This document shows, in pieces, positions 20,973-50,340 of a DNA stretch of 64,000 nt. The notes under the pieces are model-generated. The model worked only from the letters and a program-made list of their open reading frames with translations, did no database searches and was not told the DNA's origin. Each line of letters starts with the position of its first letter. Position 1 is the first letter of the stretch. The stretch is from positions 31,803,088-31,867,087 of the forward strand of contig NC_052615.1 in the NCBI RefSeq assembly GCF_016545825.1. Reading direction: 5' to 3'. The position numbers and the translations under genes are program-made. This stretch comes from Eucalyptus grandis (Eukaryota > Streptophyta > Magnoliopsida > Myrtales > Myrtaceae).

Positions 20973-20973
20973 T

Positions 20974-21857: not shown

Positions 21858-21862
21858 CAAGT

Positions 21863-28532: not shown

Positions 28533-28541
28533 AGCAAATCG
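28533..28541. other. 9 bp target-site duplication, left of Pack-MULE
   Basis: AGCAAATCG directly precedes the left TIR. The same nine bases directly follow the right TIR at 50332-50340. Confidence 0.93.
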
Positions 28542-29112
28542 GAGAAAATATTGGGTGGGTTTAACCCAACACGTAGGCGGTGGGTTAAACCATTCAGGGG
28601 TTGACACGTGGCGCCACGTTGGCGAGGGTGTCAGGCGTTCAAAATTCGCGCGGGCTGTGTGGGGCCCACCACTCTGACGCTCCCTGCTCTGCGACGCCTG
28701 CGCCCCCTGTCGAATCATCCTCTCTCTCCTCTCTCTCTCTCTCCCCCTTCTCCGTTCCGTTCCGTTGCGTGCAGGGGAGAACAAAAAGTCGCATCTCTCT
28801 CTCCATTCTCGCGCACAGCTGCTTCTCTTCCCCTCCTCTGCTCTCTCTCTCCCATTCTCGCCGACGAGCCATCTCTCCCATTCTCGACTCCGACGCCCCC
28901 TCAAGCCGGTTGCCTCCGTCGCCCCGACTCCGACGCCGACGCCGCCGCCTCCGCCTCCGCCCCGACGCCCTCTCGTGACTCCGACGCTCCTCAAGGCGGT
29001 TGCCTCCGATGCCGCCTCCGCCTCCGCCTCCGCCCCAACGCCCTCTCGCGACTCCGTTGCCCCCGACTCCGACGCCGACGCCCACCTCCGCCTCCGCCTC
29101 AGCCGACGCCCT
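28542..29112 (+). repeat. Left terminal inverted repeat of Pack-MULE
   Basis: About 571 bases matching the reverse complement of 49755-50331. The outer 250 bases are nearly identical (GGTTTAACCCAACACGTAGG region). A TC-rich tract follows, then a GC-rich inner part of CCGCCTCCGCC-type words whose repeat number differs between ends. It includes CT-rich, promoter-like sequence, and MULE TIRs often carry promoters. Confidence 0.9.
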
Positions 29113-31408
29113 TTCCACCTCCGCCGAAACCTCGACCGATCGTTCGGCTGCGGACTCTGCTCATATCTCACAGCGTCCTCGTCAGGTCGATGTTTGCCGC
29201 ACCGCCGTTCACCAGATGAGCGGTCACCAGGTCTCTCTCCGTCCCCCCCCGTCCCGCTAATCTAGCTCCTTTACGTCTCTTCTCGTTTTTTTGGTCCGTG
29301 TCTATCCGTGTGTTTATCTCCAGCCGATGGCGTTGGAGGAGAGATTCTAGTTTCTCTGGCTTTGCTTTAGTGTTCCTTGATTCTGTTGGGGACGCCCGTT
29401 TTCGAGAACGGGTTGCCTTTGTAAGTGAACCGTAGTTGAGAAGTTTAAACTAGTTGAACTTGAAGATTTGTAGCAGAGTTCTGAATTTGGCCATCGTGTG
29501 TTCGATTAGAAATAGGTTATTGACCACGATGATGGGATGCCTCGAGTAAGGATAAAATGTAACGTGGCACCTTTTTGGATCATTGGTAACTTGATACTCT
29601 AAACGTCTTTCGGTTGTAAATCCATCTATACCGTTCATGTATGTATGGTGTCTCCTTCTGAATCATCTATCAAGGTTTCGTTTGCTTCATTAAAACACGC
29701 GAGTCGCATCACAATAGGAGAAGGGGTCCTCTTATGGAAACAAATAAATCCGAGCACAAGTGGTTGGCATTTAAGTTTAGATTCCTTTAACAGCACTAAG
29801 GATTATCTTACAAGCGTCTGATACTACAGGGAATGCAACGCACCTATAAAGTAACAAAGACCTGCAGAAGTGCTATTTCGCCTATTTGAGAAGTACATGG
29901 CCTCTGATTGAGTTGAAAAAATATACATACTCTGATCATTTTCTAAATGGTCCAAAGTACAATGGGTGTTTTGAAATTTCACTTTCTTAGCGATGCCTGC
30001 GTTACATGACATGACTGCCAACCCCGATGGGAATAAAACCTTACTCCTAGTTTTGTTGATTTTCCGCTTGATATTAGCAGACTTTAATGAGACCTGTTAT
30101 TGTTGAATGATTGATTGAATTCATGTGCCTGTCAAACTTTGCTTCTCTCTCCTTGGTAGTTATTGTCAACTACATCATATTGAATGTGCTAGATGAGTCC
30201 CAGGTACACTAGGTGACAGTGAGATTCTGCTGTTTGAGCATCTACATGTGATCTCATCTCAAGTTCTTGAGAAAGAAAGGAAATTCATAAAGCATTTATG
30301 ATTGTTCTACATCAATGTGAATATTGCAGAGGCGGATGAATTAAATTAGAAATGCTGAGCATGATCTACATCGAGTTGAAAAAGGCTATTACTTGAAGAG
30401 CATGTATGTCATTGTATCATAGTCATTAAACTAATGTCCAAAAAGAGTATGTGATAAGTAAGCACTGGTATAAATAGAAATTTTTTTCAAGCTACCCATT
30501 AAGTTCACATTAAATATTAAAATTAGATGAAGTACAAAAGAAAATAGAAAGACCTAACTGAAGTAGAAGACAGTCCTGTCAATAGCATGATTTAGAACAA
30601 GTCTGTTCATGTTCTCACATGAAATTCAAAGCATTCAAAAAGTGTCCTCTTCATATTTTTGGGTTAAAAAAGAAAAAAGAGAACACTCTTTGGCCTTACA
30701 GCATATGTCAACATCTCACAGTCATACTTGTCTTCTTATCATTGGCCTTATACATCTCAGTGTCCATAACTAACTCTCATTGACTAGGAAAATCGTCTAG
30801 ATACCCGTTCTGCTTCAAGCATTTTGTTAAGTCATTACCTGTATTTTAGTTTCAGCAATCCAAGTCCTTGGACTTCTGTTATCCGTGGAATAATCTACTG
30901 TCCAATTGCTGTGAGAACCTGTAATGTATCTATTTCTGTGTGGTAGCCTAGGAGTTCAAAGGGATGTTGTATGATTGTCTATTTTCACAAACGCATTCAG
31001 TATGGGGACATATCATTGTTACAAAAGATGCGGCGCTTGTTTGGAAGTATTGTGGATTGCAAGGAGATTATGGACATTTTTATTTTTCTTACACACAAGA
31101 AAAAATCAATGATGTATTTAAATTATCTTCTCAGTTTACTGAGAACTTTTTAATAATTTCAACATCTATCTATACTAACAATATCAAAATACTCATGTAA
31201 TTCTTTTCTCATGTGTATATAGAAGAAACCATACTACAACATTTGATAATTTACATATCAGACTTTCAGCCTCATAGATTTCTTTTATTGCTTACATATA
31301 TCATCTTTAATCTCCATTGAGCTCTTAAAGAGCTGGGACATTGGTTTGTCTTTTCTCAATCTGTAGGCGTTAATTACTCCTTTTTGAGCTTTACCTTCTA
31401 CGCTGTGC
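29113..31408. other. Pack-MULE interior, no gene recognised
   Basis: Mostly AT-rich, intron- or UTR-like sequence between the left TIR and the first recognised fragment. Frames at 30964-31200 are short and unrecognised. It may include untranslated parts of captured genes. Confidence 0.5.
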
Positions 31409-31626
31409 AGACTTATTCCGAGTCTCGGGGGCACAATTTTACATTAAATGCCACATGCATGTGCGGACGTGAGTGTTCCACTAAAGAACTGTGCCATCGT
31501 TTTGATGAAGAGATACCTGAAAGTGCTAGGCAACCTTCAGTCTACCCTAGGAATTTTGTAGAGTTTTGCTCATACAAGGCAATGAATGCGGCAACAAAGC
31601 TCCTGATTCCTCTTCGCCTGATGTAG
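31409..31626 (+). pseudogene. Captured fragment resembling a DUF639 plant protein
   Basis: A probable exon begins after the acceptor CTGTGCAG. It reads with phrases ELCHRFDEEIPES and YPRNFVEFCSYKA, which resemble the N-terminal region of plant DUF639 proteins (function unknown). The frame slips near 31590 and stops at 31626. The match was made from memory on about 60 residues, so it is tentative. It is the captured piece nearest the left TIR and is in sense orientation to it. Confidence 0.4.
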
Positions 31627-32110
31627 CATGAGTAATAGGTAGAGATGGTTGGTGACAAAGCTGGAGGCATTTGTTCATCTAGTTTTATTAAGTGACTGTT
31701 TGTTTTTCATGTGGAATTTAGTCCCAATGTCACTCATTATTAGCCCGTGCATATTAGTAGTAGGATTATGTCATTTTACTCATAAACGATAATGATTGGG
31801 ATATTTTATTTCCTTAGGATATAGGGTTAATTAGTGTAGGTGTCAATTTGAGATGGAAATTGCTATTAAAAGTTTTGAAATAGATGAGCGTTGACGTTGT
31901 AGAGAACAGCCGAAATCACTGTCAAATGCATTTTTCTATACAAGATCTATACACTGCTTTGTAGTATTTTCTTCTTAGACTGAAAGTTGAAAAAAAGGAA
32001 AAGCATGTAACTGTGTGAAAGCTAACTCGAAGTCACTGTCAAATGCATTTTTCTGTCAAGAACAGCCGAAATGTGACTTCATGTTTCTCATATTTCTCAT
32101 CCATGATCAG

Positions 32111-32785
32111 AGGAGGTCACGAGATGCATCCTCTGGGACAGCTGATCAGGTGGAAAAGCATGATGAACAGAAATCTGAGGTCCCAGAGTTCTGCATTGAT
32201 GCTGGTTCAGCTGGAAACATTGCCAGGTTTATCAATCATAGCTGCGAGCCCAATCTATTTGTCCAATGTGTATTAAGTTCCCACCAAGACATTAAGCTGG
32301 CTAGGGTGGTTCTATTTGCAGCTGATAACATACCACCATTGCAGGTAATTCATTTTTCTCTTGTGATGCACTCTTCGCTTGGTAGCTATAGACTTAATTA
32401 AATATATTCAGCAGCACTGTGTCAAGTCGTAGCTCTCTCTGTCTGTACTTATGTGTGCGCTTACGAGATATAGGTGCATGCACATAGCTGCTAGTCTGAA
32501 AGCCTTGCTTATTCATGAAACTGACTGCTTTTATTTTAGTAAACTTTTGCTGATAGATTTGTTGAAAGTGTGGACCACTGGTTCTCGCTAATTTTGAGGA
32601 ACTGACATCTTTTAAGCGGGTTTGTTCTGGTTCTTCTCAGCATGACTGACTCCCAGTTATTTCGTCTGTAGGAGCTTACGTATGACTATGGCTATGCGCT
32701 TGATAGTGTTTTTGGCCCTGATGGAAAGGTGAAAAGAATGCCATGCTACTGTGGTGCAGCTGATTGTACGAAGCGCTTGTTCTAA
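32111..32785 (+). pseudogene. Captured SUVH4/KRYPTONITE fragment (C-terminal SET and post-SET exons)
   Basis: Two exons of an H3K9 methyltransferase gene. Exon one (32111-32344) starts after a CAG acceptor and ends CAG|GTAATT. It contains GNIARFINHSCEPNLF, the SET motif that shapes the AdoMet pocket and active site, and VVLFAADNIPPLQ. Exon two (32672-32785) begins ELTYDYGYALDS and contains the post-SET cysteines CYCGAADC, then a stop. In the family these bind zinc beside the active site. The open frame is unbroken across both exons, which join in phase. The SRA, pre-SET and N-terminal SET parts are absent, so it cannot be a complete methyltransferase. It is the C-terminal end of SUVH4 by close similarity to plant KYP proteins, and is sense to the left TIR. 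Confidence 0.87.
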
Positions 32786-33468
32786 AACATTAAAACATTC
32801 GAAGTGCTTGTTCCACCTTCTGTGGTTCTTATGCTTTTCTTAGCCAAGCAAATTTTGTGGTAATGTGCTATTGCGTAAGCTTGTCTGTTCCTGTAATCTT
32901 GTCACTGCCGTGACAGGTTTGATACAGTAGGTTAGATTCTATAGCCAGAAACGGAGAGGGAAAGCAAATAGGTTCTGTTGTGAAAATCAAAGAAGTGCAC
33001 GTCGTTTGTCGGCTAAGGAAGTTTTGTGTATTTAGGATCTGTCATTTTCCCGTGTTACGATACTTTGGGCTTTGATTGCCCACTATATCTGCAAATGAAA
33101 ATTCAGGGGTGAGAGGGGAAGCAACAAAAGTGCTTTTCCCTCACTAAAAAGACTTGGTTTTGTAGAACCTGTGCGGTTGATTTCTTATATTGTGAGCCCT
33201 TTGGTTTCCTTTCAAGTCACTCACGCCATGCGGTCACTTCGAGTGTCAAGTGCCTTGCTGCTTCCATCAAGTGGTCCTGGCTGAATTATCTTCCGGGGAA
33301 GACAACTAGGCTTGTGAAATCTCATGCCTGACAGCACAATTTTGCATGACACTTCTGACCTGCATGTCAAGAGAAAACGCAAGGTAATTCTGATGCTTCT
33401 GAGAGCAGAGTATTGTCATCACTTTTTGATATAGATTTAGGGTGACCAAAAATGTCATTTTGTTGCAG

Positions 33469-34369
33469 ATTGAAGAAGCCCATGGGTTAACAAGATTGAT
33501 GAGCAGTGTCCACCATCCTTTCACTACATACCTCATAGCCTCGCTTTCTCTAGTGCTTCTATCAATTTCTCCCTTTCTGAGATCGGAAATGAGAATTGCT
33601 GTTCAAATTGTTATGGTGACTGCCTGCCTTGTCCAGTACCCTGTGCTTGTGCATGTGCAAATGGGGGTGAGTTTATATACACTGTGAAAGGTCTTGTAAA
33701 GGAAGCTTTTTTGTTGAAGTGTATTTCTGTCAATCGCGACCCTAAAAAGAGCCACCACTTATATTGTTGGGAATGCCCTCTAGAAAAGTCAAAAGATAAC
33801 AACATTTTAGAACCGTATACGGGCCACCTGAAGAGAAAATTTATCAAACAGTGCTGGAGAAAGTGTGGTTGTGGTAAACATTGTGGCAATCGAGTGGTGC
33901 AGCGGGGCATAAGTTATAATATGCAGGTAAAGAATTGTTTTCGTGTTATTTTAAAGCTTTTGCCTGTTGTAGCTCTACTGTCATATTTGGACCTTGTGGT
34001 GGTTATCATTCTTAAAAGTGTTCCAGTTACTACTGCAGTGAGTGACTTTGTTTCGGAACCCTTAAGCTTAAGCCTGTACTCTTTTGTGACTGATTTTGTC
34101 CTTTAGGTGTTTATGACGCCTGAAGGAAAAGGGTGGGGTCTGCAAGCACTGGATGAACTGCCTAAAGGTGCATTTGTATGTGAGTACATAGGTGAAATAT
34201 TAACCATCAAGGAAATGCATGAGCGAAATTTGAAGAAGGGTGACACTGCGAAACGTACTTATCAGGTGCTCCTTGATTCTGATTGGAGCTCCATGTGTGT
34301 GAAGGATGATGAAGCTCTTTGTTTGGATTCAACGACCTTTGGAAACATTGCTAGGTTTATCAACCATAG
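33469..34369 (+). pseudogene. Captured SUVR-type SET gene fragment (pre-SET and N-terminal SET exons)
   Basis: Exon one (33469-33926) reads in one frame from about 33474. It contains the pre-SET cysteine cluster (CCSNCYGDCL, CACACANGGEF) and then KCGCGKHCGNRVVQRG. It ends ATGCAG|GTAAAG. Exon two (34107-34369) continues in phase with MTPEGKGWGLQAL and AFVCEYIGEIL, the start of the SET fold, and ends at FINHR before a donor. The pattern matches plant SUVR1/2/4 proteins, histone H3K9 methyltransferase relatives. The next SET exon (second half and post-SET) is missing. A TGA lies in frame just after the first acceptor (33471-33473). It is a separate gene from the SUVH4 piece upstream. Confidence 0.85.
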
Positions 34370-35057
34370 GTATTTGTTTGTTTTGAGAAGTAGCATTCTT
34401 ATGTTTATTTGGTTTTTGAGCTCTTAGATTGTTATTGCATCTGCCTTTAAGATGGAAATTCCTCAATATTGGATGGTTTAATTCGTAAACGTAGCTCCTG
34501 GCAGAAAGTTCACTTTTTAAGCATAAGTCCTTTGGTCTAAAGCTTTGAGAATCCAACTTTCAGCTGCGCATTGCAAGCTTATCTCCTAAAACAGCATAAA
34601 AATTCAAGACACCTGGAAAGGATTTCCCTATTCATTCATCGTAGAACTCATGTATTAAACCTGGTGAAACTGAGTTATTTGCTTTGTCATCTGGTACTGC
34701 TATTGTTTCCTGAGGGACTGTAGAAAGCAGACCTTGACTCTTCTCTTTCAAACGACCATCCCTTGGTCAAGAGAATCAAGTTACCTCCATACCTTCACTG
34801 AGATATCTCACACATTTTATGTTTTTTAAATTGCTTATCAAAAAGAAAACATTCAGATTTTTGGCCACTGTATGTGTTATTTCGAATTGCATGATCTCTG
34901 TGATTTAATTGTGTAAAGTACAATTTGAGATGGAAATTGCTATTAAAAGTTTTGAAATAGATGAGCGTTGACGTTGCAGAGATGAATTCTAAATGCCCCC
35001 AACTGCAATGCATGAGCTTAAAGCTTTGAGTCATAATAACTTCCCATTTTGATATAG

Positions 35058-36104
35058 GTCAAAGTTCTCAACAAACTTGCTTCAACTCGAGCTTCAGGAG
35101 TAGGTAGCGGCAGCAGAGTCTTGACAGATTTGGTAGAGGGTCTAGAAGAAGCAGCCGTTGCTGTAGAATTGAGGTTGAAGATCAACCAGAGTCATCCGGA
35201 CTTAAAGGGAGGGTACGTGGTTTCTTGGTTTCTAGCAATGTCGTTTTCTTTTTCCTTCTCTAAGATCCTGATAGTGTAGAGGTTACAGATCTTTCTGAGA
35301 CTATGGAGAGGCAGTGTTGAAGCACTTGGAGAACTCTATTGATTTGGACCCAAAGCTTCAGAAAGCTCCAGTAAATTATAAAGGAGTAAGTTTTGAATCG
35401 ATGAAGTTATTCTTAATAGATTGGACCTCATCATTTCAGCAGCTATTTATATTGTGTATTATCGTGTTCATATGCTGAGGAGACAAGTTAATGCTCTAAT
35501 TCTCAATTAAAGTACATAAGTTTTGAATGCTCTTGGGGATGGGAGCAAGAAGGAGAGTTAAACGTCACAATGGAGTCCATGTTGGTTCTTGATTTGTATC
35601 TACAAGAGGAGTCAAAATTATAGTCCACAATGAGTTGAGCAAAATGCTGTGTGCTTACCAAAATAATATCTGAACTAGTGACCTCAGAGGAGTATTTTAC
35701 TATAAAGTAAATGCAGGTCCATCATGCTATCTAGTTAATTCCTCCCTTCTTTTCTCCCTGAATAGCGCAAGACACTGGGTGAGCTTTGCATTTTGCATGT
35801 GATGCTGATCTCTAGTCTGATTGCTGCTTAAACAGGTCCGGGTATCTGGGTTTGGAGGATGGTTCCTTCTGAGGCTCTCGCTTTATGATCCTGTTCTTCC
35901 TCTTAACATTGAGGTAGAGGAATCTCTTACACAAGCTACCATAAAAATGATTTTATTGAATTAAGAATTCAAATCAAAATTTATCTGCTGTAGGCACCAA
36001 CTCATGATGACGCTGTAAAACTTGGACTTGCTGTGCTTGGGGCTATTAAGGAGTTTGCAGCTTTGGATACATCCGCTTTAGACAAGTTTGTTCAAGTATC
36101 ATGA
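35058..36104 (+). pseudogene. Captured phosphoglucomutase-like gene fragment (C-terminal exons)
   Basis: Four exons with GT-AG borders: 35058-35212, 35289-35385, 35836-35913 and 35994-36104. Translation contains VLTDLVEGLEEAAVAVELRL, HLENSIDLDPKLQKAP, GFGGWFLLRLSLYDPVLPLN and SALDKFVQVS before a stop. This resembles the C-terminus of a plant phosphoglucomutase/phosphomannomutase-family protein (Arabidopsis At1g70820 type). The identification rests on memory of that family. Exon two has a TGA (35296-35298) where the family has arginine, probably CGA to TGA. The catalytic phosphoserine domain is not present. Sense to the left TIR. Confidence 0.65.
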
Positions 36105-37493
36105 GCCGATGATGCAGAGCGCTTTGGTACAAGTATCTTTCGGCACATTAGACTAGCAGTTAAAGTTGGCTTTGGCGTCTACCTCTGTACAGTACGTATA
36201 ATCAGTGCGTCAATCTCTGATGCTGAGGAGGTTCATTTTCCAGATGGTTTTGGTCACAGGCACTCAAAATAGTACTTGATGGCTATGTTTACTTTAGTTT
36301 TTACTTATGTTCCATGTATGCAACAGGGATGTTCTGATAAATAAGAAACGTTCTTCGACTACAGAATTTGTCGGAGGGATGTTTGAAGTTGTGATGCAAC
36401 TAGTTTTTCTCGTTTTTATAATGTTCGATTAATTTTGATTGCGCGTATCTCCTGATCATTGTTCTTTACATGGAATGTACATTTTCTGTGCTTAAATGTT
36501 GTGATGTTTCCCAAAGACATCCCACGCATCTAATGTTTGTAATGATGAAGACTCATATTGGATGTCTTGATGAACTGACCTAAATCTCTTGCGTCCGACA
36601 ACTCTGGCTCACGTCCCGTTTCTTTCTGGTTCATGAAACTATTTTCTGAGCGTGAACTTAGTATTTGGGAGGTGGAACAGAGGCTGTCTCTTCCAAGATA
36701 CTGATTACTTGCCCCGCTGTTGATCTAATATTGAGGTCAAGTGCCATGTACCTCGCCAAATGGGGATCACATCCTCTGAGATTGTAGGCTATGTCAGAAA
36801 GAGTCGAGAGTTTATTGCGGTTCACAGTGCAAAGGTTTTTTAGTTTCGTCTCTCTTTTACTTTGTAGTGATGGCTGATGATAGCAATGAGGTTCCGCATG
36901 ATGAAAGCCACCGCATGAACAAGACTATTATTGTACTTCAGCAAAACATACCGAAGCAGAAATTCCAGGAGTTGTCATGTGTGGAATCTCTGCTACTACA
37001 CATGACAGTCTTCCTACCCATTGTTTACTGTTCTTGACATTAGACAATGCCGCCTTATTGCATACTCCAGGGATTCTTTGGATGTTAATGTTCATTCAAT
37101 GGATTGGGTCTATAAATGATTACCTTATTGTATTCTGAAAAATCAAAATGAGGAGAAACATGAAATTCATGAGAGCCACTATAAGGACTTAATGGGAAAA
37201 AATAACTATGGGGGGAGAGGGAGGAGAAACATGAATCCTGGATCGAGGCAAAGTATTCACCTTCTTAACTTGTATGAATTTATTGGAAAAGAGCATTTGA
37301 TTCAGGCAAAAAGCAACATAATAAAGTACAGAACCTCCTCTCAGCACCACTTGATTATCGTTCCGCTGTAGCTCAATACTACTACAAAACACGAATGTCA
37401 CAGCCAAAATCGCAGAGCAAGACTTGCAAATCATGCTCAGCGGCTATGAATGATGAAAGACATACATATGTAGTACCATAACTCACACCCACA
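36105..37493. other. Centre of the Pack-MULE, convergence zone
   Basis: No coding fragment recognised. It probably holds the 3' UTR sequence of the phosphoglucomutase-like piece (left) and of the PGDH piece (right), which point toward each other here. An ATG-led frame at about 36870-37010 is unrecognised. Confidence 0.5.
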
Positions 37494-39705
37494 TTACAAC
37501 TTGAGGAAAACGAACTCCTCAATTGCAGAGATGTCCCCGATCCTCTTCAGAGTCTCCTTGCTGGGCTGGTCATCAACTCCAATTGCCATCACGGCTTGCT
37601 TTCGCAGTGCAATCCTACCAACGCTCATGAAACTGACATTGACATTCTCTTCTCCCAAAATGGTTCCTACTGTGCCAATCATACCTGGCTGATCAACTTG
37701 CCTGCACAATATGATGCTTCCCTCCAAGCTCACATCCACTTCGAAAGATCCCACCTTTGTGAGATGTGGGATCCCATCCTTCACCCGCCCCTCAACCGTG
37801 ATCTCCCAGAATCTGAAATGGCGCTGGCAAATCTTGATTCCACATTTGCAATCTGAACCTGGACATACTCAAGAGGACTCTCTGGTGAACCATCTAAGAT
37901 GACCCGCTCCTCTGTTATTCTTAGTCCTCTCTGCTAAGCAGTAAAATCTGCATTGACCAAGTTCACAAAGACATCGAATATGGGTTCAATTATACCCTTA
38001 GTAATCATAGCACGGAGTAGTCTAGTGTCGAGATCATCAGGTGCTCTTGCAGAAGCATATGTCACTTTTATGGTTTTTACACCACTCCCACCCCCAACTA
38101 ATTGAACGGCCAATCTCCCAAGCTTCTCAGCAAGTACAACAAATGGTTTCAGCTCTGTAAGAACCTGCAGCCAAAAAGGAAATGTATAAAGAACTCAACA
38201 TTTATGTTACTCAAGCATATCTTGAGCCAAGTTCTGCCTTCTGGATCTTAAAAAAAGCACCCTCAGCCATCAAAATCGTCATTACAGTCATCCAGAGTTA
38301 CTTGTCTATCACACCACATTATTGACCCACTTCCTAAAGGAATCGACCAAGGGGAAGCATCTCTTACAGTCTTCAAAAGCTCACTTCCTCTGCTCATCTT
38401 GTACTGAGAGGAAGCTGGATTTGGGCCAAAGCCAAACATCAACGAAATTAAACAATTGTATACATATCGGATGATTCCAATCAACCACCTCAGTAAAAAA
38501 TGTTTGCCAGAAAAGATCAAACTTCTACTGAGCACTGACAATCATTCTCCTCCACGGTACATATCAAACAATTGGGCCAGCATATTTTACGGTCCTCAAA
38601 ATCTCACTTCCTCTATTCATCTCATACAAAGAGGAAGCTGGATTTGGGCCAAAGCCAAACATCAATGAAATTAAACAATTGTACACATATCAGAAAATTG
38701 CAATTGATCGCCTCAGAACAAATCTTTGCCAAAAAAAAGATCAAACTTCTAGAGAGCACCCATACTCATTCTCCTCCAAATCACACATCAAGCAAGTTCC
38801 ATCACAACAATTATGCATCAGAGCCCAAGCCATGATGAGATATGTCAAATACTGAGAGCACATATATTGAAGATTGAGAGGAAACAGATTGGAGGATAAA
38901 AAGTTAGAAATAGACCAAGAGATGCCAAACAGCCAAGTTGTAGAAAAAGTTCTTGATACCTCAGCAGGAACCATCGGCGCATTGACAGCAGTAGCAGCCA
39001 ACTCTCCTTTTAGAGCTCCAATGACAGCTTCAGCAATTTCAATAGCCACTCCTTCCTGGCATGTCAAGTGACCGTTTTATATGCTTTCTAATAATATAGA
39101 GAAAGTTAAAGTTGGGTAAACTGTAACTGTTCACAAACCTGAGCTTCTGTGGTACTGGCTCCAAGGTGTGGGGTCACCGTGACCCTCTCGTGTCGTACCA
39201 ACTTGCTGTCCTTCGCTGGTGGCTCCTCTGTGAAGACATCAAGTGCCGCCTGCAACAAGGCTAGTATGTGCTTCACCTCCCAAGGCAACAAGAAGGAAAC
39301 TCAACATTTCAGATATGAGATAGCAATACCTGAGCAACAGTTCCAGCATCCAATGCCCTCACAAGAGCTTCTTCATCAATCACTCCTCCACGAGCAACAT
39401 TGACAATTCGAACTCCTTTCTTCATCTTTGCAAAAGTCTCATCATTGAGAACCTTTGATGTAGCAGGTGTCAGGGGCATGTGTAATGAAATGAAATCTGC
39501 AGTTGCTATGGCTTCATCAAAGCCCACAAGTTCCACCCCACCGCGCGTGCTCGATCTGCGGGGGCATAAGGGTCATGTGCAATCACATGCATACCAAGAC
39601 CTTTGGCACGACGTGCGACTTCTGATCCAACCTTTCCAAAACCCATAATGGCAAGCGTTTTCCCAACAAGGGACACACCCACATATTTGTTTCTTTGCCA
39701 CTTTC
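37494..39705 (-). pseudogene. Captured D-3-phosphoglycerate dehydrogenase fragment
   Basis: In plants this enzyme starts the phosphorylated serine pathway in plastids. Visible minus-strand exons: 39330-39705, with the NAD-binding motif GFGKVGSEVARRAKG and RIVNVARGGVIDEEAL; 39139-39249, with TPHLGAS; 38960-39055; and 38164 down to the stop at 37494-37496, with the C-terminal ACT regulatory domain (IILCRQVDQPGMIGTVG). The first part of the enzyme is missing. Lesions include a one-base loss near 39540, an in-frame TAG at 37934-37936 where the family has lysine, and a one-base loss near 37805. Intron 38056-free sequence between exons is retained, with a tandem duplication at 38356-38779. Sense to the right TIR. 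Confidence 0.88.
38356..38779. repeat. Tandem duplication in the captured PGDH intron
   Basis: Two units of about 200 bases (38356-38555 and 38579-38779), offset by about 223 bases. They share GGATTTGGGCCAAAGCC and AAGATCAAACTTCTA with moderate divergence. The lower divergence in some blocks suggests duplication after or shortly before capture. Confidence 0.75.
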
Positions 39706-40017
39706 CTGCATCAAGCAAAACAACCATATGTCAAAGACCAACATCGGTATAGCCTTAAGAAAATGTTGGCAACTCATTTTGTCCCCTATAAAACTTAAGC
39801 ATTGACATAACTAAGGAGGCAAAATCCAAAAACCCGTGCATCTCCTACCAATAGTAGCATGACAAGCTGCTTTAGCTCTTGTTTACTGATTGCACAACTC
39901 AATTATTCTTCTAGTTTTGCTTTATGGTATGATGTTGAGCAAACATGCATAGTGGTTGAAATTGCTATTCATATTGATCGTGCAGTGCCAAAGGTCAATT
40001 CCTTATCTCTAAAGACT

Positions 40018-40473
40018 TGAAGGCAACCCCTTGCTTGCAGCGGCCAATTCCATCAGCTCCAGCTGTTCATCCTCCATAAGCTCCATGGATTCCTCGGCAA
40101 TTCTGCGAGCAGTGGCCTTCTCCACTGCAGCTTTTCGTCTCTCTTCTTCTTTTTCTTGACGAAGCTCTTCTTTTGTCTCTTTTTCTCCGCCTTCCAAACA
40201 AAAAAACCAGAGAAGTTGGTAAAGAAAAGAGAAAAGAAGAGATGCTACTTAACCAATCAAATAAAGCAAAAGAAACTAACTAGTGAAAATGCAATATCAA
40301 GCTCAAATACTTACCTTAGATTCTTTCTGCAAATACTACTCCTGTCGCTCTGATTCTCGCCTTTGCTCACGTAGCAATCTCTCCTCTCTCTGCTGTTCAC
40401 GCATCAACCTTTCTTCTTCCTTCCTTATTTCATGATCAAATCTTTCCATCTCTTTCCTCATTCGTTCCTCAGA
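40018..40473 (-). pseudogene. Captured RLT-type homeobox-DDT gene fragment
   Basis: Two exons, 40315-40473 and 40018-40190. They encode a highly charged helix (ERMRKEMERFDHEIRKEEE, then RRKAAVEKATARRIAEES) followed by ELMEDEQLELMELAA. This matches the linker between homeodomain and DDT domain of plant RLT1/RLT2 proteins, partners of ISWI chromatin remodellers. Neither the homeodomain nor the DDT domain is included. A TAG near 40336 and a one-base shift near 40165 break the frame. Sense to the right TIR. Confidence 0.7.
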
Positions 40474-41460
40474 CTGCAATAGAAAAATACAGGATATCAG
40501 TACATACCAAAGTTTTCTCCACAAAGCTCACATATCCTTAACACTCAGCACAACTCTTCAAAAGGAAAAGGAGGAAAAGTGAGGGACAGGGAAAGAAAAT
40601 CAGTCAATGTCCAAAGTTTTCTCTCGATCTTCTTCACATTAACAGGTTTCAGTATCCTCTGTTTTCTGCACCCACTCTCATTCCATCCACTTTCCTTCAT
40701 TTCGCAAACAAAGACTAAAGAGAGAATCGAGCCAAAAGGAAACTCCTTTTGTCCCTTGTCACACTTTCATTGAGAACTCATGACGATCGGCGACCCAATG
40801 TGAAGGAAGATGGAAAGTATGATGACGAAAACAATGCCGAATACCTCCAATAAAACTCCAACATTCATGCAGAGAATATCCACTTAGGTTTAGTGCGATG
40901 GTTAATCTTTCTTTGTTTAATATCAGTTCTAAATGTGACCTTGTAAGCAAAGAAGGTTGTTATCTTTAAACGAAATCAATGTCATGAGTTCCCACCCATT
41001 GTAAAACAAGGAAGTAGGTACATCGACTGAGCTCTAGTCAGTATGACAGTTGTCCTCCACGAATCAATCGAACAAGAATGCACACTAAACCACAGCGCCA
41101 ATGAATCGCCAAGTCACACAGATTTGATAATGCAGGCTACCTTTCCTAATACATAACATGAGGAGGCAATTATATTGTTGATGCAGGGAATGACCTCTTA
41201 GTAAGACCAAGAAAAGGCTGCAGCGAATGAACGATAGAAAATGCTGGATCAGCGGAGATTGACTAATCAATGTGTGATATTCACTAATCGACCATATATA
41301 ATAGAAAACTTCCCAGGGCAAAACTCTGTCAACATCCACGGCCATGTACCGTTCCAAGTGATTCACAAAACACACACCTCTCTCATTCTTCCTTCTTATA
41401 GCCAGCACGGAAGTAGACTCCATGCTATTTATTTGATACATGTACAAGCACGAATGTCAG

Positions 41461-41649
41461 CTAAAAGGTTACCTTTATACCCAGTAGTGCCATTAACTGA
41501 AAAATGAACTCTGGGTGACCAGGCCAAGCCGCTCCTGTGACCAAGTTTCCATCGGTGAAGCAGCGATTGATTGGATCAGGTTCTAACCATGTGGCACCGG
41601 CTAGTACCACGTCGAGCTTCACAACAGGATATGCTGTACATTTCTTCCC
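41461..41649 (-). pseudogene. Captured DJ-1 homolog D fragment (last exon)
   Basis: A single terminal exon begins after a TTGCAG acceptor. It reads KKCTAYPVVKLDVVLAGATW, DPINRCFTDGNLVTGAAWPG and HPEFIFQLMALLGIKV before a stop. This is the C-terminal end of the second DJ-1/PfpI domain of plant DJ1D (glyoxalase III-type) proteins. The exon is open. Only about 62 of some 390 family residues are present. Sense to the right TIR. Confidence 0.8.
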
Positions 41650-42917
41650 CTGCAACAATTCACGATGAATACACCGGTTATACCCTGATGATCTCAAGAT
41701 ACAATAACACAGAATGCCATTCAACTTCAGAAAATTTTCATGTCAAATACAGGAAGACAATACCTGTGTATCAGTGGATGCGTTATCTAGGAAGCAAATT
41801 TTCTCAAATTCAGACTTAACAAAACTAGGATGACCAAGAGAAGTGGCAAGCAGCGCCCAGGCTTCCATAGCACTTTCTGCACTAGAGAAAAGAGTTTTCA
41901 TCTCCTCCGACTTCTTTTCATCCAATGATGATACGTCTGATGAGACTGCAAGATTCTCACTCTTAGAATACACAGAATCATCACTTTTCATTTTATTATC
42001 ATTCTTTTCCATAGAACGCGCTTCCTTATTTAGCCGAGAAACTGCCGCAGTCAAAACCATCAATGCCCCCAAAACAGAATCAGTTTGCTGCAACAAATCT
42101 TGTGTCACTTTTTTTATATCCGGAATTGAAGACTGAATTGCACTTCTTAGAAGTGGCCCGCTCTCTGCGGAATCATCAATATCTTGTCTACTCGGCGTTG
42201 CAAGCCCAGATTCAACGTAAGCTTTTTCTGCAACTTTCCGGGATTGTATGCCAATCTTATTTAGTACATCAAAACCATCCCATTTTACATTCTCAGGGAC
42301 AGGAAGACCAAGTTTCTGTACAACCTTCTGATTGATAACATCTGCAAAGTTCTTCCAGAAATGTTTGTCAAACTGTATGGATTCACCAACTAGCATTTTT
42401 TCTCCATTAGCATTCTCAAATCCAGTTGAATCAGGGGAAGACTCAACAACAATGTTCTCTTCATTCAGTCTCTGGTCATTCAGCAATGGCATTGACCGAT
42501 TCCCCTTCTGCTACATATTTACCACTATTTAAAAGCTTATCCTTCCAAGGATATGTCTCATTAAAGGATTTCAACTGCCCAAAAGCATATTCAACAAACT
42601 GCCGAGCCAGCACACTATCAGACCCAACAATTGATTTCAAAGTAGACTCAAACCCATTTTGCCTGAGGAACTCTGAAACAAATGGGAGCTTCCACCACTT
42701 CTTTCCCTCATCAATTTCATCAAAACTTTTATATCTAACCTGAAACAGCATCACCAGTGAGCTTGCTCATTTTTCCGGCATAACACGCAGAAGGACGATA
42801 ACTGGTATCTTAGTAAAGCATGGAAAGAAATCCACAATAATGAAACCAAGGTTAGAATTCTCATAAATGGAATTCAGATACTCATCACCAATTTTGCCTG
42901 GTTCAGATAGGATTCTC

Positions 42918-43668
42918 TGTTGTGATGATGGGCGACGATCGAACAAAATATAGACGGAAGAAAAAAATAAATCGGACACCGGATTTACGTGGTTCGATCG
43001 TAAAGACCTACGTCCACGGGGAGAGCGGCGGCGAATTTCACTATAGATCAAGCGATACAGGAGATTACACACTCAAGTCACTCAAACACTCTCTCGGTGT
43101 TTCCCAAACCCCAATTTAACCCCAAACCCAAGTCACGACACAAAATTATCACACAAGCTCAAAAACAAACGCTGAAAAAGAACTCCTTCTCTTGATCGCG
43201 CTTCAGCTTGAAGATATGCAGCTCCTTCTTTTCTCTCGTACGGGTGCAATAGCAACACCCCGAAAAGAAGACCTTTTCGTAGCTTCCTTGGATGACTTCT
43301 ACGTAGGGTTTTGGTCGGCAATTTTTCAAAAGCCCTCCAGAAGAAAATCTGCATAATATTTACTTTTATACATGGGTGTGCAGGACGTGCCAAAGAAGGA
43401 AATCGTGCGCCCAAGCTTGGGCCCACCTACGCTCCGCTCCGTGCTTCGCTGAACGTGTGTGTGTGCCCAGAGTCAACACTTTGACTCTGGGCCCACCCAT
43501 TCATTCACATGCAGACGGAATCCACGAGTAAATTCGTTTCTCATACCCACGGCCGGATTCCTTTTTTTTTTTTTTTTTTTTCAACTTTATTTCCTCTTCA
43601 GTAATTCCTTCGCAAGTCCACCAAATTTTGCGTTTTAGCAAACGCTCAAACTCGAGTCATATTTAACA
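42918..43668 (-). repeat. 3' LTR of RT-less copia element
   Basis: 751 bases, paired with 46006-46757. Plus-strand ends are TGTTGTGATG and TTTAACA. It contains a long homopolymer T run at about 43561-43580. Confidence 0.93.
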
Positions 43669-45964
43669 ATCTCCACCTTGGCTCGATGTTTGAGCCAAAT
43701 TACAATCGCTTCGTAAAAATTCAAATTCTGCTGCTACTTTCCCATAGCCCCCGATGGGCTCAACCGCCACGATATTATCCAAGTTCAAGCATCGCTGAAC
43801 TTCGCCATAACCGAGGATCTCATCGAATACCAACTCCACATGCACCTTTAATCGCTCCGCAAGGATTTTCGACGTAACCTCCCTAACTGCGGATAAAGCA
43901 AAACCATTATTGCATCCATATCTATCAGGAGATCGAACACGTACCTTGTTAATTTCAGCAGTTACAGCAACCGTTGGCTCTATAAGCTCCACCTCGCTAT
44001 AAGCACCATCCGTGTCGATTACTTTGCTAGTACCTGTACTCGCTACCTCAGGAGTTTCTGGTTGCAACTCCACCTCAAGCTGAACACCATTCAGATCCGT
44101 ATTAATATTGCTATAATCACTCCTAGCTAGAAGTACTTGAGACTCATCAAGGGTAACTTCTCTGCTGTTAACAGGTGAATTTATATCTGGGCACCACAAC
44201 TATCGCCCCACTCACCTTGTGCATAGCCATGGAATATGCACCTTGCCCTCCCATCAAGCTTACCATCACTCACTCGAAAATAACATGGGCAACCAAACAT
44301 TCCAAGAATAGAATAATCAGCAACGTTACCTGACCACACTTCTTTAGGAGTCCGCCATTTAATAGCAGTTGATGGGGATCTATTCACTGGGTAGCTTACA
44401 TGTACTTAGCACATCGCTAGGATTCTCCTAGCAATACCAAAGACTAGAGAAAATTTTTCGGGCCATCTCTAGTAATGTTCTGCTCATCAATTCTGCAAAT
44501 TGTTGTGATTTACTAGCACTAGTGCGGTGTTTCACTATGCTATCTTTCATGCAGAATTTATTTGTTAGCTCTGAGCAAAACTCCATGCTATTGTCAGTCC
44601 GCACATGCTTGATCGACTTACCGGTCTCCGTCTCGATCAAAGCTCTTGATTGCGAGATCCTGACATCAGCATTAAACTTGTGCCTTGGCACAAACACCCA
44701 GGTCTTCCTCGAGCAGTCAATAGACTCTCGAACAGATGCATCCGACGTCTTCGCAGCGAAATTTATCACTGTCTCACCTTAAAGTTTATACAGGCCATCG
44801 TGCTTGATTCCTTTCATTATCACCAGGGCACCTCGAACAATCTTCAGAACTCCACCTTTTGAAGAATACCTGCAACCAGCTGAATCTAGGGCACCCAAGG
44901 AAATTAAGTTCTTTTCCAATTCTGAACATGCCTCACTCCAGGTCAATGTCCTCACGATACCATCATGCATTCTGATTTTAATATCACCAACACCCACAAC
45001 ATCGCACTCAGCGTTGTTCCCTAACTGAACTTTACCATTACCCGTGCACTGATAAGTGATAAACCAATTTCTATTTGGTGTGACATGAAAAGAACAACCA
45101 GAATCCATAATCCATCCATCAAACAATGAATAATCAGTGACAGACAAGACATAATCAGCATTATCCGCTACAGCTGCAACATTATCTCGTAGAATCAACC
45201 ATAATTCCCTTACCCTTCTCATTCTTCAGCTTAAGGCAATCCCTTCTAAGATGCCCCCTCTTGCCACAGCTCCAACAGACAACATTAGCAGTCCTAGATT
45301 GACTACGTCTGTTCATATTAGTACTACCATTACCCACACGTATTACAGCTCTTCCTCTATTTTCACCTACTAGAGCAGTAGATGCAGATTCGCCAGATTC
45401 TCTTCTACGAATGTCCTCACTTAGAATCAAATCTCGAACCCCATCAAACGTCAAACTTGTTGACCCGGAGGAATTACTAACAGCAAAGAGAATCTGGTAG
45501 TATTCCAACTATCGTGCAATGAGGATAATAGAATCAAAGCACATACCTCATCTTCAAAATCAATCTCAACCAACTCAATTGACTAACAATCACATTGAAT
45601 TCATTGATATGATCTGCAACTGACGCACCTTCTTTCATCTTCAAGTTAAATAGACGTCGCATCAAACAGACCTTGTTGATCGCAGAGGGCTTCTCATACA
45701 TATCCGACAGGGCTTGCATCAAATCGCGTGGTCTTCTCCTTCAGATGTTAAATGCGACGTTACGAGCCAACGTCGCCCGAATAACACCCATAGCTCGTCT
45801 ATCCAGCAAATCCCAATCATCTTGCTTCATCGTCGCTGGTTTCTCCCCGGACAAGGGCAAGTGCAGGTTTCATCGATAAAGATAATCTTCAATCTGCATC
45901 TTCCGAAACTAAAATCCTTCCCATCAAATTGCGCGATTCTCACTTTTACTTCTTCTGTCGCCAT
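43669..45964 (-). pseudogene. Gag, protease and integrase remnants of RT-less copia element
   Basis: Reading from the ATG at 45964 (MATEE), Gag pieces include INEFNVIVSQL near 45600 and a zinc knuckle CWSCGKRGHLRRDC near 45240-45290. Protease motif MDSGCSFHVTPN lies near 45100. Integrase pieces lie at 44428-44769 and 44181-44387. A 178-codon frame at 43663-44199 begins like the usual linker after integrase (SREVTLDESQ) but then carries unrecognised sequence up to the polypurine tract. RT and RNase H are absent. Stops and shifts separate the pieces. Confidence 0.8.
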
Positions 45965-46005
45965 CGATTCGCTTCAACTCAGCCAAGCCTGGCTCTGATA
46001 CCACT

Positions 46006-46757
46006 TGTTGCGATGGGGCGAGCGATCGAACAAAATATAGACGGAAGAAGAAAAATAAATCAGACACCAGATTTACGTGGTTCAGTCGTAAAGACCTACG
46101 TCCACGGGGAGAGCAGCAGCGAATTTCACTATAGATCAAGCGATACAAGGAGATTACACACTCAAGTCACTCAAACACTCTCTCGGTGTTTCCCAAACCC
46201 CAATTTAACCCCAAACCCAAGTCACGACACAAAATTATCACACAAGCTCAAAAACAAACGCTGAAAAAGAACTCCTTCTCTTGATCGCGCTTCAGCTTGA
46301 AGATATGCAGCTCCTTCTTTTCTCTCGTACGGGTGCAATAGCAACACCCCGAAAAGAAGACCTTTTCGTAGCTTCCTTGGATGACTTCTACGTAGGATTT
46401 TGGTCGGCAATTTTTCAGAAGCCCTCCAGAAGAAAATCTGCATAATATTTACTTTTATACGTGGGTGTGCAGGACGTGCCAAAGAAGGAAATCGTGCGCC
46501 CAAGCTTGGGCCCACCTACGCTCCGCTCCGTGCTTCGCTGAACGTGTGTGTGCCCAGAGTCAACACTTTGACTCTGGGCCCACCCATGCATTCACATGCA
46601 GACGGAATCCACGAGTAAATTCGTTTCTCATACCCACGGCCGGATTCCTTTTTTTTTTTTTTTTTTTTTTCAACTTTATTTCCTCTTCAGTAATTCCTTC
46701 ACGAGTCCACCAAATTTTGCGTTTTAGCAAACGCTCAAACTCGAGTCATATTTAACA
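46006..46757 (-). repeat. 5' LTR of RT-less copia element
   Basis: 752 bases, near-identical to 42918-43668. Followed on the plus strand by TTCTC and the resumed lipase intron. Confidence 0.93.
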
Positions 46758-48972
46758 TTCTCTAATATTCCTACCAAAGTCCAATAGTGGAAATATTTTT
46801 TCTCCTAGCATTATTGTCTGATTTCTGAAAGATTGTTATTAAACTTGTTTATTAGTAGTTCTTATTCACACTTCATACATGTGAGACAATATACAAGCAC
46901 TGCGTGTTTGTGTCATATGCATCTCAGTAGATACTCGATTTTGACATACAAGATCGAATGGACAAACAACCCCCATGATTGATTCAATGTCTTTGAAACA
47001 GATAAGAGGTTTACTTTGTATTTCAATGTCATCTTTTCCACCAATATAATAAAGCAAGTTTAGCCTATTGGAAAGGGCTGAGCTGGAGTGTGTGCAGACT
47101 TAGATGTCCAGGGTTCATAGCGTATTGGTGTAAACTGGTTCTTCAAGCATCTAAGATTTACCCAGCGACTGTTTCATAATAACAAAAGAGAAACGATGTT
47201 ACAACATCTTGGAGAAAGCTCTTATACAGTAATTGCCAGGTACTCAAATAAGCAAACGTTAATAAAAAGCTCTTGCTAATGCTCAATGATTCACAGATAG
47301 ATGCTGGAAGCTACAGGCCTAAACGAAAACTCTACCTTCTAATTGGAACTTCTCTTGAACAATTACAAATCATATATAGATGTTTATTTCAAGAAGTCAA
47401 GAGTCTTCAAACAGAAATCCTAATCGTCCTTTTAAGAGAGCTTCCAACTATGTGATTGATATAAAAATGTTTCCACACTTACCTCTAACTGTATCTTCCC
47501 TCCACCACCCATTCCTTCTAATTCCACAACCATTTCATGTGAATCTCCTGGAAACAGACATGCTCATCAAGAAAAAGTACAATTTCCATATGATAGTCAT
47601 TTCATCCATTGCCAAGGTCATAGAGTATCAAATAATGTTTCACAGGAGAAAAACTGATCTGGTATATTGCTCATTTATTTGACTTCTGAACCACCAAACT
47701 AAACCACCACCAGCATTGCACAATAAAGTTCAAAATACAAATCGACAACAAATTCAATGATTCTCACCATCACACAGAAGCTCCAAACAGATTCCTGCAT
47801 TGCCCATTCGCTTGTGTGGAGTTACCAAGTTTGCATCCCAAGCTGCCACCTAGCATCCACACCACAGTGAACAACAAAAAGATCAACAATTATTCAGCTT
47901 CAGTTCATGCATTTAAGGATAGCTGTATCCATTTGCTGAGCGCCAAAATTAGCAAGGACTTGTACCCAAAAAAAACAAAATGGTGGAGTTGCTTGCTTCG
48001 TGTTATGTTAATGCAAGATATATGGCACAATCAACTTGGGATTGTATCAAATAAGGCAACAAATGAGCAAATCTCCTTAGCATGTAAAGAGGAGTCCAAA
48101 ATTGATGCAGCAGTTGGCCCCCTCAAAATGGCGTTCATTCATTTATTACAAAAGTAGCATCACATATTTTTAGGATAAGTCCTTCCTAAACATGCCAGCA
48201 ATTCGGTCTCCAGTTAGTCCACAGATGCAAAGTGGAAAGGAAGTAATGGATACCACTCTGGTAGAGGCTTAACCTGGAGGTTTTTAGTCGAAGGGAGCTT
48301 AATGTTAAAAGTGAATTCCTCATTCCATGTTGGCTCTTTCTTCCTGTCAGCAAATTTGATTGACAAATAAAGTTGCAATAAGTCTGTAAATCCAGAGTAA
48401 ACTTAATTTTTCCTCCATATGCATCATATGCTCTCATCTCCTGTATTCTGTGTACAGCAGATAAACTAAATTGCAATTAGCCAATGTAAAAAGAGCTAAA
48501 GATTATTGCTTCAGAAGCTTCAGCAAAATTGTTTTGCAGAAACTGATGGGGAATGCTAATAATATGTCTTATCATTTAGGTCATCATGCGAGAAGCACAA
48601 AAAATAATTAGTAGCTGATAAATATTGTATTTCTCATTTTAAAAGTGAAAGCACCCTTTAACATTTTAAGGGAAGGAATTCCATAGCCTGCACCAACTTA
48701 ATATAACCGCTCCTTGAGTACGGCTTTGTCAACTTGGGAAATTACATGGGCCGTGTGGGGTATTTTAGAGAGGAACTGCTAGCTACGTTTAGTAAAGAAG
48801 TGTGGAAATAAGTACTTGTGGTCTATGCGGCTGCTAGAACTGCATAAACTCCCAGAATTTCCGTGGCAATGAAAGTGCCGTTTACAAAATTTTTAGTTTT
48901 TCCCTTGCATACACAAGTTTCCATGTATGCCAAAATACTCTATAAGGTGGTAGGATAAAGTAAAGGAAGTAC

Positions 48973-49658
48973 CTTGACAATAAGTAGACACCCCATTGGA
49001 CCAGTTACAGCTCGGATGCCCTGAAATATATACAATAGAGCAAAATGAATCTCATAGACAAGGAGACAAAACATAAAGCAAGAGATCCATGACATTTTCC
49101 TTGTTTAGTCATATAATCATGAGAAAACATACAGCTAGAACAGCATCAACTGGTGGAGAAGCAAAAACATCACCACATATTGCAGCTGCTAGCATCCCTT
49201 CACCCACGAATCCAGAATGAGCTGGCTCATGGCCGCTACCGCCAACTGACAAAGAAATAGCATAGATCATTGAACTGGAGATTCTTATGCATAAATCATG
49301 GCCCGCTGTTGAAGTCCATCACTTTCCTTCTAAATGATTGAACTGTAAATGAATTAATTGGGTAGATGAAGTAGAAGCTGTGGGGAATGAGGAGTTGCGA
49401 ACAGATCAACGGTTTCTAAATGAGAGGTAAAAAAAGTGTTTCTGAATATAGAAACATTGGCAGGAACTGAAAGATAACAACCATATCACGCTGATGCCAT
49501 GGACATCACCGACAAAATAAGAATTCAAGAAATTCAATGCGCACAATTAGATTCTAAAACATTAACATAGAAATGCAGGGAAGACAACATTAACCTGATA
49601 TAACGACGACCTTGTCATATGTAGCAGGCGAAATATCAGCCCGCAACACGACCTTCAC
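48973..49658 (-). pseudogene. Captured dihydroxyacetone kinase fragment (N-terminal exons)
   Basis: The enzyme phosphorylates dihydroxyacetone. Three minus-strand exons: 49595-49658 (VVLRADISPATYDKVVVIS), 49133-49245 ([35 protein letters not shown]) and 48973-49020 (GIRAVTGPMGCLLIVK). These cover the start of the DhaK domain, with the family's [10 protein letters not shown] motif altered to [11 protein letters not shown] across a splice junction. Frames are otherwise open. The remaining DhaK and all of DhaL are missing. It is the piece nearest the right TIR, and an unspliced frame runs from the TIR into its first exon (49590-50336). Confidence 0.87.
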
Positions 49659-49754
49659 CTGCATTTCCACCAATAGGATTGGAATGGTCGTGTGAGTTAC
49701 CGAATAAACTGTAAGACTAATGAAAGAAGCATAAAAAAAAAAAAATTTACGAAA

Positions 49755-50103
49755 GGGCGTCGGGGCCGGAGGTGGCGTCGTCGGCATCGGAGTCGGGGGC
49801 GATGGAGGCAACGGCTTGAGGGGCGTCGGAGTCGGGGACGACGGAGGCAACCGGCTTGAGGGGCGTCGGAGTCGGGGACGACGGAGGCAACCGGCGGACC
49901 CGCAACACGACCTTGAGGGGCGGAGGCGGAGGCGGAGGCGGCGTCGTCGGAGTCGCGAGAGGGCGTCGGGGGCGGAGGCGGAAGCGGAGGCGGCGTCGTC
50001 GGCGGGGCGTCGAAGTCGAGAATAGAGAGAGAGAGCAGAGGAGGGGGAAGAGAAGCAGCTGTGCGACCTTTTGGTTCTCCTCCGCAACGGAACGGAACGG
50101 AGA

Positions 50104-50146
<43 letters not shown>

Positions 50147-50331
50147 GACGATTCGACAGGGGCTCGGCGTCGCGAGGAGAGCGAGCGGGGAGCGTCGAGT
50201 GGTGGGCTCCACACGCAGCCCGCGCGAATTTTGAACGCCCGACACCCTCGCCAACGTGGCGCAACGTGTCGACCACTGAATGGTTTAACCCACCGCCTAC
50301 GTGTTGGGTTAAACCCACCCAATATTTTCTC
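49755..50331 (-). repeat. Right terminal inverted repeat of Pack-MULE
   Basis: Inverted copy of 28542-29112. The inner part holds a 40-base tandem pair at 49813-49892 and an AG dinucleotide run at about 50107-50136. Positions 49899-49914 (CCCGCAACACGACCTT) are identical to 16 bases of the DAK exon at 49640-49655. Confidence 0.9.
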
Positions 50332-50340
50332 AGCAAATCG
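50332..50340. other. 9 bp target-site duplication, right of Pack-MULE
   Basis: AGCAAATCG, identical to 28533-28541, directly follows the right TIR end CAATATTTTCTC. Confidence 0.93.

What the first reader, a model, noticed from the sequence alone, without database searches (positions are those of the whole stretch)
28542..50331. A 21.8 kb Pack-MULE carrying about nine host gene fragments
Seen: about 570 bp inverted ends beginning GAGAAAATATTGGG, and a perfect nine-base duplication AGCAAATCG on both sides. When the element is removed, the outer LTR sequence rejoins across one AGCAAATCG. Inside are intron-containing pieces of at least eight recognised gene families and one tentative one, and no transposase. 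Known: Mutator-like elements make nine-base duplications, and Pack-MULEs carry host gene pieces, typically in elements of a few kilobases with one to three sources. A single element of this size with this many donors is exceptional. Even without the later 3.8 kb copia insertion it is nearly 18 kb.
Basis: partly seen in the sequence, partly recalled or inferred. Interest (0 to 1): 0.93.

Follow-up and report, generated by a model that had tools for sequence, protein, structure and literature searches.

The report
Giant gene-collecting jumping element in Eucalyptus
This stretch of a Eucalyptus-type genome is an unusually large jumping element that carries pieces of at least seven unrelated plant genes, and the same unnatural gene joins are annotated elsewhere in two Eucalyptus genomes, which suggests the assembly was built up in steps and copied.

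Summary
The core observation holds. A 21,790-bp element (28542-50331) has long inverted ends (outer 123 nt 95% complementary; 574/581 bp at 73% gapped) and abutting perfect 9-bp duplications, AGCAAATCG. Pfam finds no transposase. A later copia element makes up 3.8 kb.

I recognise seven donor genes, not nine: SUVH4, SUVR, phosphoglycerate dehydrogenase, an RLT-like gene (label recalled), DJ-1D, one C2-lipase gene and dihydroxyacetone kinase. Six of seven keep introns of their own; all read inward. About 7 kb is unassigned.

New: the host is Eucalyptus-like. Six listed Eucalyptus gene models, on four E. globulus and two E. grandis contigs, carry joins seen here; one fuses four donors. Phosphoglycerate dehydrogenase models have adjoining locus tags at two loci. 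Two further models join kinase sequence to a lipase that keeps its lipase domain and branch as an earlier stage.

This is best read as a multicopy, stepwise-built Pack-MULE of exceptional size: a new variant of a known kind. The window copy is decayed. Ends at other loci and an autonomous partner were not seen; the own-genome search did not complete.

The parts
28533..28541 (.). left 9-bp target-site duplication AGCAAATCG
28542..29115 (+). left terminal inverted repeat, starts GAGAAAATATTGGG
32108..32785 (+). SUVH4 (KRYPTONITE-type) histone methyltransferase fragment: two exons of the SET region with their intron, to the stop codon
   Evidence: Pfam SET; PDB 4qen, chain residues 419-497 and 495-533; stop read
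33480..34370 (+). SUVR-type SET methyltransferase fragment: two exons, residues 394-630 of E. grandis P0121, 95-97% identical
   Evidence: Pfam SET
37497..39715 (-). 3-phosphoglycerate dehydrogenase fragment: four exons to the last residue before the stop, introns kept; broken by two frameshifts and one in-frame stop
   Evidence: Pfam 2-Hacid_dh_C, PGDH_inter, ACT; PDB
40018..40479 (-). two exon pieces of an RLT (homeobox-DDT type) gene; family name recalled, not confirmed by a family library
   Evidence: present in P0002, P0004, P0008 and P0243; no Pfam match above cut-off and no convincing PDB match
41461..41649 (-). DJ-1 homolog D fragment, C-terminal exon
   Evidence: Pfam DJ-1_PfpI; PDB 4ogg
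41764..48342 (-). C2-domain lipase gene fragment: four exons (five tblastn blocks, the last exon split by a deletion with frameshift near 42485), lipase domain missing; copia element in one intron
42918..46757 (-). later copia-type LTR retrotransposon, 5-bp duplication TTCTC on both sides; LTR K2P 0.024
48973..49664 (-). dihydroxyacetone kinase (Dak1) fragment, three exons
   Evidence: Pfam Dak1; P0002 matches dihydroxyacetone kinase 1un9
49751..50331 (-). right terminal inverted repeat
50332..50340 (.). right 9-bp target-site duplication AGCAAATCG

Best explanation
This is a non-autonomous Mutator-like element (a Pack-MULE), about 17.9 kb before a copia element landed in it, in a Eucalyptus or close relative. 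It captured DNA of at least seven host genes, introns included (shown). It was built in steps: a kinase-lipase join came first, and a truncated lipase joined to DJ-1D, RLT-like and phosphoglycerate dehydrogenase pieces came later (supported by a protein tree). The assembled block spread to several chromosomes, most likely by transposition with a transposase supplied from elsewhere (inferred). Captured exons read inward from both ends, so promoters in the ends would give spliced chimeric transcripts (inferred). The window copy is decayed and probably makes no full chimeric protein.
For: Ends and 9-bp duplication; no transposase domain found; seven donor families; GT and AG sites at the hybrid introns, e.g. 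lipase to DJ-1D and DJ-1D to RLT. Six of the 120 listed relatives (536 found) are Eucalyptus models joining the C2-lipase piece to Dak1 and/or DJ-1 without the lipase domain, and they map exon by exon onto the window. The nine kinase-joined rows form a clade (98/97; 100/98); grouping the two rows that keep the lipase domain with the parent is rejected (p-AU 0.0009; the group was chosen after seeing the tree).
Against: Other copies are known only as predicted proteins; their inverted ends and duplications were not seen. The link between the left half (two SET pieces) and the right half is seen only in this window: among 120 listed SUVR relatives (1334 found) the only row named Eucalyptus is P0121, a longer SUVR protein standing for 11 sequences that I did not see one by one. 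The split between the two-donor and many-donor rows has modest support (82/80 and 80/80) and the bootstrap had not settled. No autonomous partner was found. Segmental duplication could have spread part of the block.
Confidence: 0.87

Rival explanations
1. Composite element: two neighbouring Pack-MULEs with compatible ends, one carrying the SET pieces and one carrying kinase to phosphoglycerate dehydrogenase, were mobilised as one unit. Donor number then reflects fusion rather than repeated capture.
For: Donors form two opposed blocks (two + on the left, five - on the right). The right block is seen in predicted proteins, the left block has not been seen elsewhere. Fusion of neighbouring Pack elements is described for other superfamilies in PMC8903248 (section 9 read).
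Against: No internal inverted-end remnant: only one short 12-14 base simple-sequence match inside. The left block cannot be excluded from the other copies, because only proteins were seen.
Confidence: 0.3
2. The block spread by segmental duplication or ectopic recombination, and the inverted ends and 9-bp match belong to an unrelated or coincidental structure.
For: Flanks of the other copies were not seen. P0001 and P0011 lie on contigs of the same length.
Against: A perfect 9-bp duplication abuts ends matching at E 1.6e-99. Chimeras lie on four E. globulus contigs of different length.
Confidence: 0.07
3. A domesticated chimeric gene: the kinase-C2-DJ-1-RLT fusion is a working host protein kept by selection, and the element is only its origin.
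For: Several models keep an open fusion over up to four donors (P0002 585 aa, P0004 572 aa).
Against: Gene models are biased towards open frames. The fused domains are partial (best Dak1 stretch 34-74 of 313; DJ-1 109-164 of 165). The window copy is broken in the lipase and PGDH parts. No selection test was possible without DNA of the other copies.
Confidence: 0.06

Closest known systems
Pack-MULEs of rice and other plants (Jiang 2004, as cited in PMC6431247 and PMC8277862; passages seen)
   Same: Long inverted ends, 9-11 bp duplication (PMC3310237, passages), host gene pieces, no transposase, multicopy members; intron-containing pieces are recalled for the class
   Different: PMC6431247 says none of the 2004 set exceeded 7 kb and most were 1-2 kb; PMC8277862 calls them about 300 bp. 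Here about 17.9 kb and at least seven donors.
Large Mutator-like elements: barley Hvu_Abermu 8,176 bp (PMC9168764) and a maize multi-end MULE listed over a 10.7-kb interval (PMC3310237 table); passages seen
   Same: Size beyond typical MULEs; 9-bp duplication (Abermu)
   Different: Abermu carries its own transposase; neither is described in the passages seen as carrying many donor genes
Tgm-Express1, a soybean CACTA element (PMC1947982; passages seen)
   Same: Five unrelated gene fragments with introns and exons; spliced chimeric transcripts shown
   Different: CACTA superfamily, 5.7 kb, fewer donors
Maize Helitrons with stepwise capture (PMC3288121; passages seen)
   Same: Zero to nine gene fragments; sequential capture inferred from related elements
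   Different: Rolling-circle elements without inverted ends or target duplication (recalled)

Membership tests
Pack-MULE | long terminal inverted repeats | tested here: met
Pack-MULE | 9-11 bp target-site duplication | tested here: met
   perfect 9 bp
Pack-MULE | host gene fragments at DNA level, introns included | tested here: met
   introns of their own in six of seven pieces
Pack-MULE | no transposase of its own | tested here: met
   no transposase domain in six frames of 29116-42898 and 46763-49764, Pfam; the ends and the copia interior were not scanned in six frames
Pack-MULE | intact parent genes elsewhere in the host | tested here: inconclusive
   longer relatives found for the lipase (P0006, E. 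globulus) and SUVR (P0121, E. grandis); no full-length Eucalyptus PGDH among the 120 listed of 6171; the other four not looked up in Eucalyptus
Pack-MULE | ends shared with a mudrA-coding or other MULE in the genome | not testable with these tools
   own-genome search unanswered
Pack-MULE | other copies flanked by different target duplications | tested here: inconclusive
   the same joins on several contigs as proteins; no DNA available
CACTA (Pack-CACTA) | CACTA termini and 3-bp duplication (definition recalled) | tested here: not met
   termini GAGAAAAT, 9-bp duplication
Helitron | no inverted ends and no target duplication (definition recalled) | tested here: not met

The most novel reading that the evidence does not exclude
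A mobile exon-assembly platform: an 18-kb non-autonomous MULE that still transposes well above the usual size, adds new donor genes in its interior step by step, and drives two converging transcription units, one of which makes a spliced four- or five-donor fusion transcript or protein in present-day eucalypts.
Probability: 0.2. Interest if true: 0.82.

Novelty: new variant of a known kind. Interest (0 to 1): 0.66.

Why it matters
How Pack-MULEs pick up genes, and how large they can grow and still move, are open questions (PMC8277862 calls the origin perplexing; PMC6431247 discusses a size limit; passages seen). Here one family seems to show an earlier stage (kinase joined to a lipase that keeps its lipase domain) and a later stage (truncated lipase plus DJ-1D, RLT-like and phosphoglycerate dehydrogenase pieces) in two sequenced species, so the order of capture could be read directly. 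It also warns that several annotated Eucalyptus genes are probably transposon cargo.

Tried and rejected
Ordinary conserved gene region: rejected, because the pieces are truncated parts of unrelated genes and their joins recur on several contigs while longer lipase (P0006) and SUVR (P0121) relatives exist apart. C2 and lipase as two donors: rejected, one gene. Further donors: ten small open frames, two of them from the RLT-like piece, gave no Pfam family above its curated cut-off; weak rows dropped were AGMP_C (19.1 bits against 28.3), Relaxase_M, CTHRC1_C and Malate_DH. Internal inverted-end remnants: none beyond a 12-14 base simple-sequence match. RLT label: PDB gave one weak match (E 0.27), so the label rests on recall. 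Species: not fixed; the window's lipase part is nearest to E. grandis P0008 by path, while the RLT piece matches E. globulus P0002 best (95.7%, against 89.4% for P0004 and 87.9% for P0008). Orientation: the chance that seven randomly oriented pieces give only + on the left and - on the right, any split, is 8 of 128, so the inward arrangement is suggestive only. Coverage: Pfam frame scans left out the ends and the copia interior (one copia open frame was scanned); PDB frame scans covered 29116-42896, not 46763-49750.

Not in print: the searches for Pack-MULE with Eucalyptus (four papers, one mention of each term), Eucalyptus with Mutator-like (eight papers) and at least three of Eucalyptus, chimeric genes, transposable elements, gene capture (twelve papers, ten listed) were judged from their listings and showed no such element. 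The library lacks most subscription papers, and two Pack-MULE papers were not held, so a larger known case cannot be excluded.
Full report
OBSERVATION. Direct reading and self-comparison confirm the ends. AGCAAATCG lies at 28533-28541 and 50332-50340 and nowhere else on the + strand of the window. The inverted repeat spans 28542-29115 and 50331-49751 at 73% over 636 gapped columns, E 1.6e-99; its outer 123 nt are 95% complementary and its first 50 bases identical. The ends are 65-66% G+C, the six interior stretches measured 38-44%. The flanks look like one LTR: TGTTGACACC at 27884 and GCGACA ending at 53795, and a repeated unit occurs twice left of the insertion and once right of it. This fits an insertion into an LTR, but there is no empty copy here to prove it.

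LATER INSERTION. A copia element sits at 42918-46757 with 5-bp duplications TTCTC, LTRs 96% identical, K2P 0.024, and a Pol domain on the minus strand. It lies in an intron of the lipase piece, so it came after the capture. Without it the element is about 17.9 kb.

CARGO. Six-frame Pfam scans of the interior outside the copia element found two SET domains, 2-Hacid_dh_C, PGDH_inter and ACT, DJ-1_PfpI and Dak1, and no transposase. PDB comparisons name SUVH4, further SET methyltransferases for the second SET piece, DJ-1 homolog D and D-3-phosphoglycerate dehydrogenase; one frame gave nothing. The 255-aa open frame at 42510-41743 belongs to a plant C2-domain lipase, whose full-length relatives hold both C2 and lipase domains, so these count as one donor. 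The SUVR piece covers residues 394-630 of the 707-aa E. grandis protein P0121 at 95-97% in two exons. An RLT-like piece is recognised by recall only; Pfam and PDB gave no family, but it is part of the same chimeras. That makes seven donors. Six show introns between their own exons; the DJ-1D piece is one exon with splice sites on both sides. Roughly 29.1-32.1, 34.4-37.5 and 40.5-41.5 kb remain unassigned and may hold more.

HOST AND OTHER COPIES. The lipase search found 536 relatives, 120 listed. Six listed models, all Eucalyptus, join the C2-lipase piece to Dak1 and/or DJ-1 without the lipase domain: P0001, P0002, P0004, P0009 (E. globulus, contigs of 51.5, 66.9, 56.9 and 42.9 Mb) and P0003, P0008 (E. 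grandis, 60.5 and 62.8 Mb). P0002 runs kinase, C2-lipase, DJ-1D, RLT in one 585-aa model. Mapped back, these proteins follow the window exon by exon: kinase 49664-48991, C2-lipase 48342-41764, DJ-1D down to 41473, RLT 40479-40339. The hybrid introns keep GT and AG sites, for example after the lipase exon at 41764 and before the RLT exon. The phosphoglycerate dehydrogenase search (6171 found, 120 listed) listed two rows named Eucalyptus, both 5'-truncated E. globulus models: P0242 (ACJRO7_030697) and P0243 (ACJRO7_027236). So five donors recur together on two further contigs. All six chimeric models hold about a dozen residues that the window lacks near 42485, so the window is a different copy or allele.

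STEPWISE GROWTH. P0011 (E. globulus) and P0036 (E. grandis) join kinase-region sequence to a lipase that keeps its lipase domain. P0011 holds 23 residues identical to the window's non-coding stretch 48775-48707, and P0036 matches 49095-48964, so the kinase-lipase join looks like the same event. In a protein tree the nine kinase-joined rows form one clade (98/97, 15 rows; 100/98, 12 rows) apart from the parent-like P0006. Forcing P0011 and P0036 to group with P0006 is rejected (p-AU 0.0009), with the caution that this group was chosen after the first tree was seen. Truncation and kinase joining each need one change. The split within the clade is only moderately supported (82/80 and 80/80), and the bootstrap had not settled. 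The reading: kinase plus lipase first; lipase truncation and the more internal DJ-1D, RLT and phosphoglycerate dehydrogenase pieces later, before the two species parted. This agrees with the observation in PMC8903248 that newer cargo tends to lie further inside (section 9 read). Whether P0011 and P0036 lie inside elements, and what lies downstream of them, is unknown.

DECAY. The window copy has a deletion with frameshift in the lipase part near 42485, and in the phosphoglycerate dehydrogenase part two frameshifts (near 39540 and 37800) and an in-frame stop near 37935. Both E. globulus models leave out the place of that stop, so the stop is probably shared (inference); they read through the places of the two frameshifts. 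No selection test was possible, because only proteins of the other copies were available.

MECHANISM. Shown: DNA-level capture, 9-bp duplication, recurrence of the same joins in gene models. Inferred: transposase in trans, spread by transposition, transcription from the ends inward. How capture occurs is open. Gap filling and template switching (PMC8277862, passages) and fusion of neighbours (PMC8903248) all remain possible; the lack of internal end remnants slightly disfavours simple fusion.

KNOWN AND NEW. PMC6431247 (passages) states that no Pack-MULE of the 2004 set exceeded 7 kb. Larger MULEs exist (8.2 kb in PMC9168764; a 10.7-kb interval in PMC3310237), and many-donor elements exist in CACTA (five, PMC1947982) and Helitrons (up to nine, PMC3288121). 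PMC8903248 reports that larger Pack elements hold more loci (section 10 read). A MULE of about 17.9 kb with at least seven donors and a partly readable history is therefore a new variant, not a new kind. PMC13317346 has no occurrence of Eucalyptus in its main text. Literature searches.

Noticed in passing
282-1394, 6995-7687, 54150-54863, 58632-59261, 59706-60944 (all -): Cytochrome P450 exons on both sides: the element and several LTR elements sit inside a P450 gene cluster; several of the large direct repeats overlap these exons.
   Followed up: partly
9905-26632 with 12364-21857 inside: Nested LTR retrotransposons: outer LTR pair K2P 0.039, inner pair K2P 0.012; copia-type reverse transcriptase at 23420-24133.
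   Followed up: partly
27884-28541 and 50341-53795: Apparent solo LTR of about 4.1 kb into which the MULE inserted; no clear 5-bp duplication at its ends by eye.
   Followed up: partly
31844-31905 and 34921-34982: A 62-bp direct repeat, 98% identical, lies before and beyond the two SET pieces; it could mark a capture or repair junction.
   Followed up: no
38356-38571 and 38579-38795: Tandem duplication (82%) inside an intron of the phosphoglycerate dehydrogenase piece.
   Followed up: no
29116-32100, 34400-37480, 40500-41460: About 7 kb of cargo without a recognised donor; the open frame 31321-31626 looks exon-like but matched no Pfam family.
   Followed up: partly
P0001-P0004, P0008, P0009, P0011, P0036, P0242, P0243: Eucalyptus gene models in public databases that appear to be transposon cargo annotated as ordinary genes.
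   Followed up: partly
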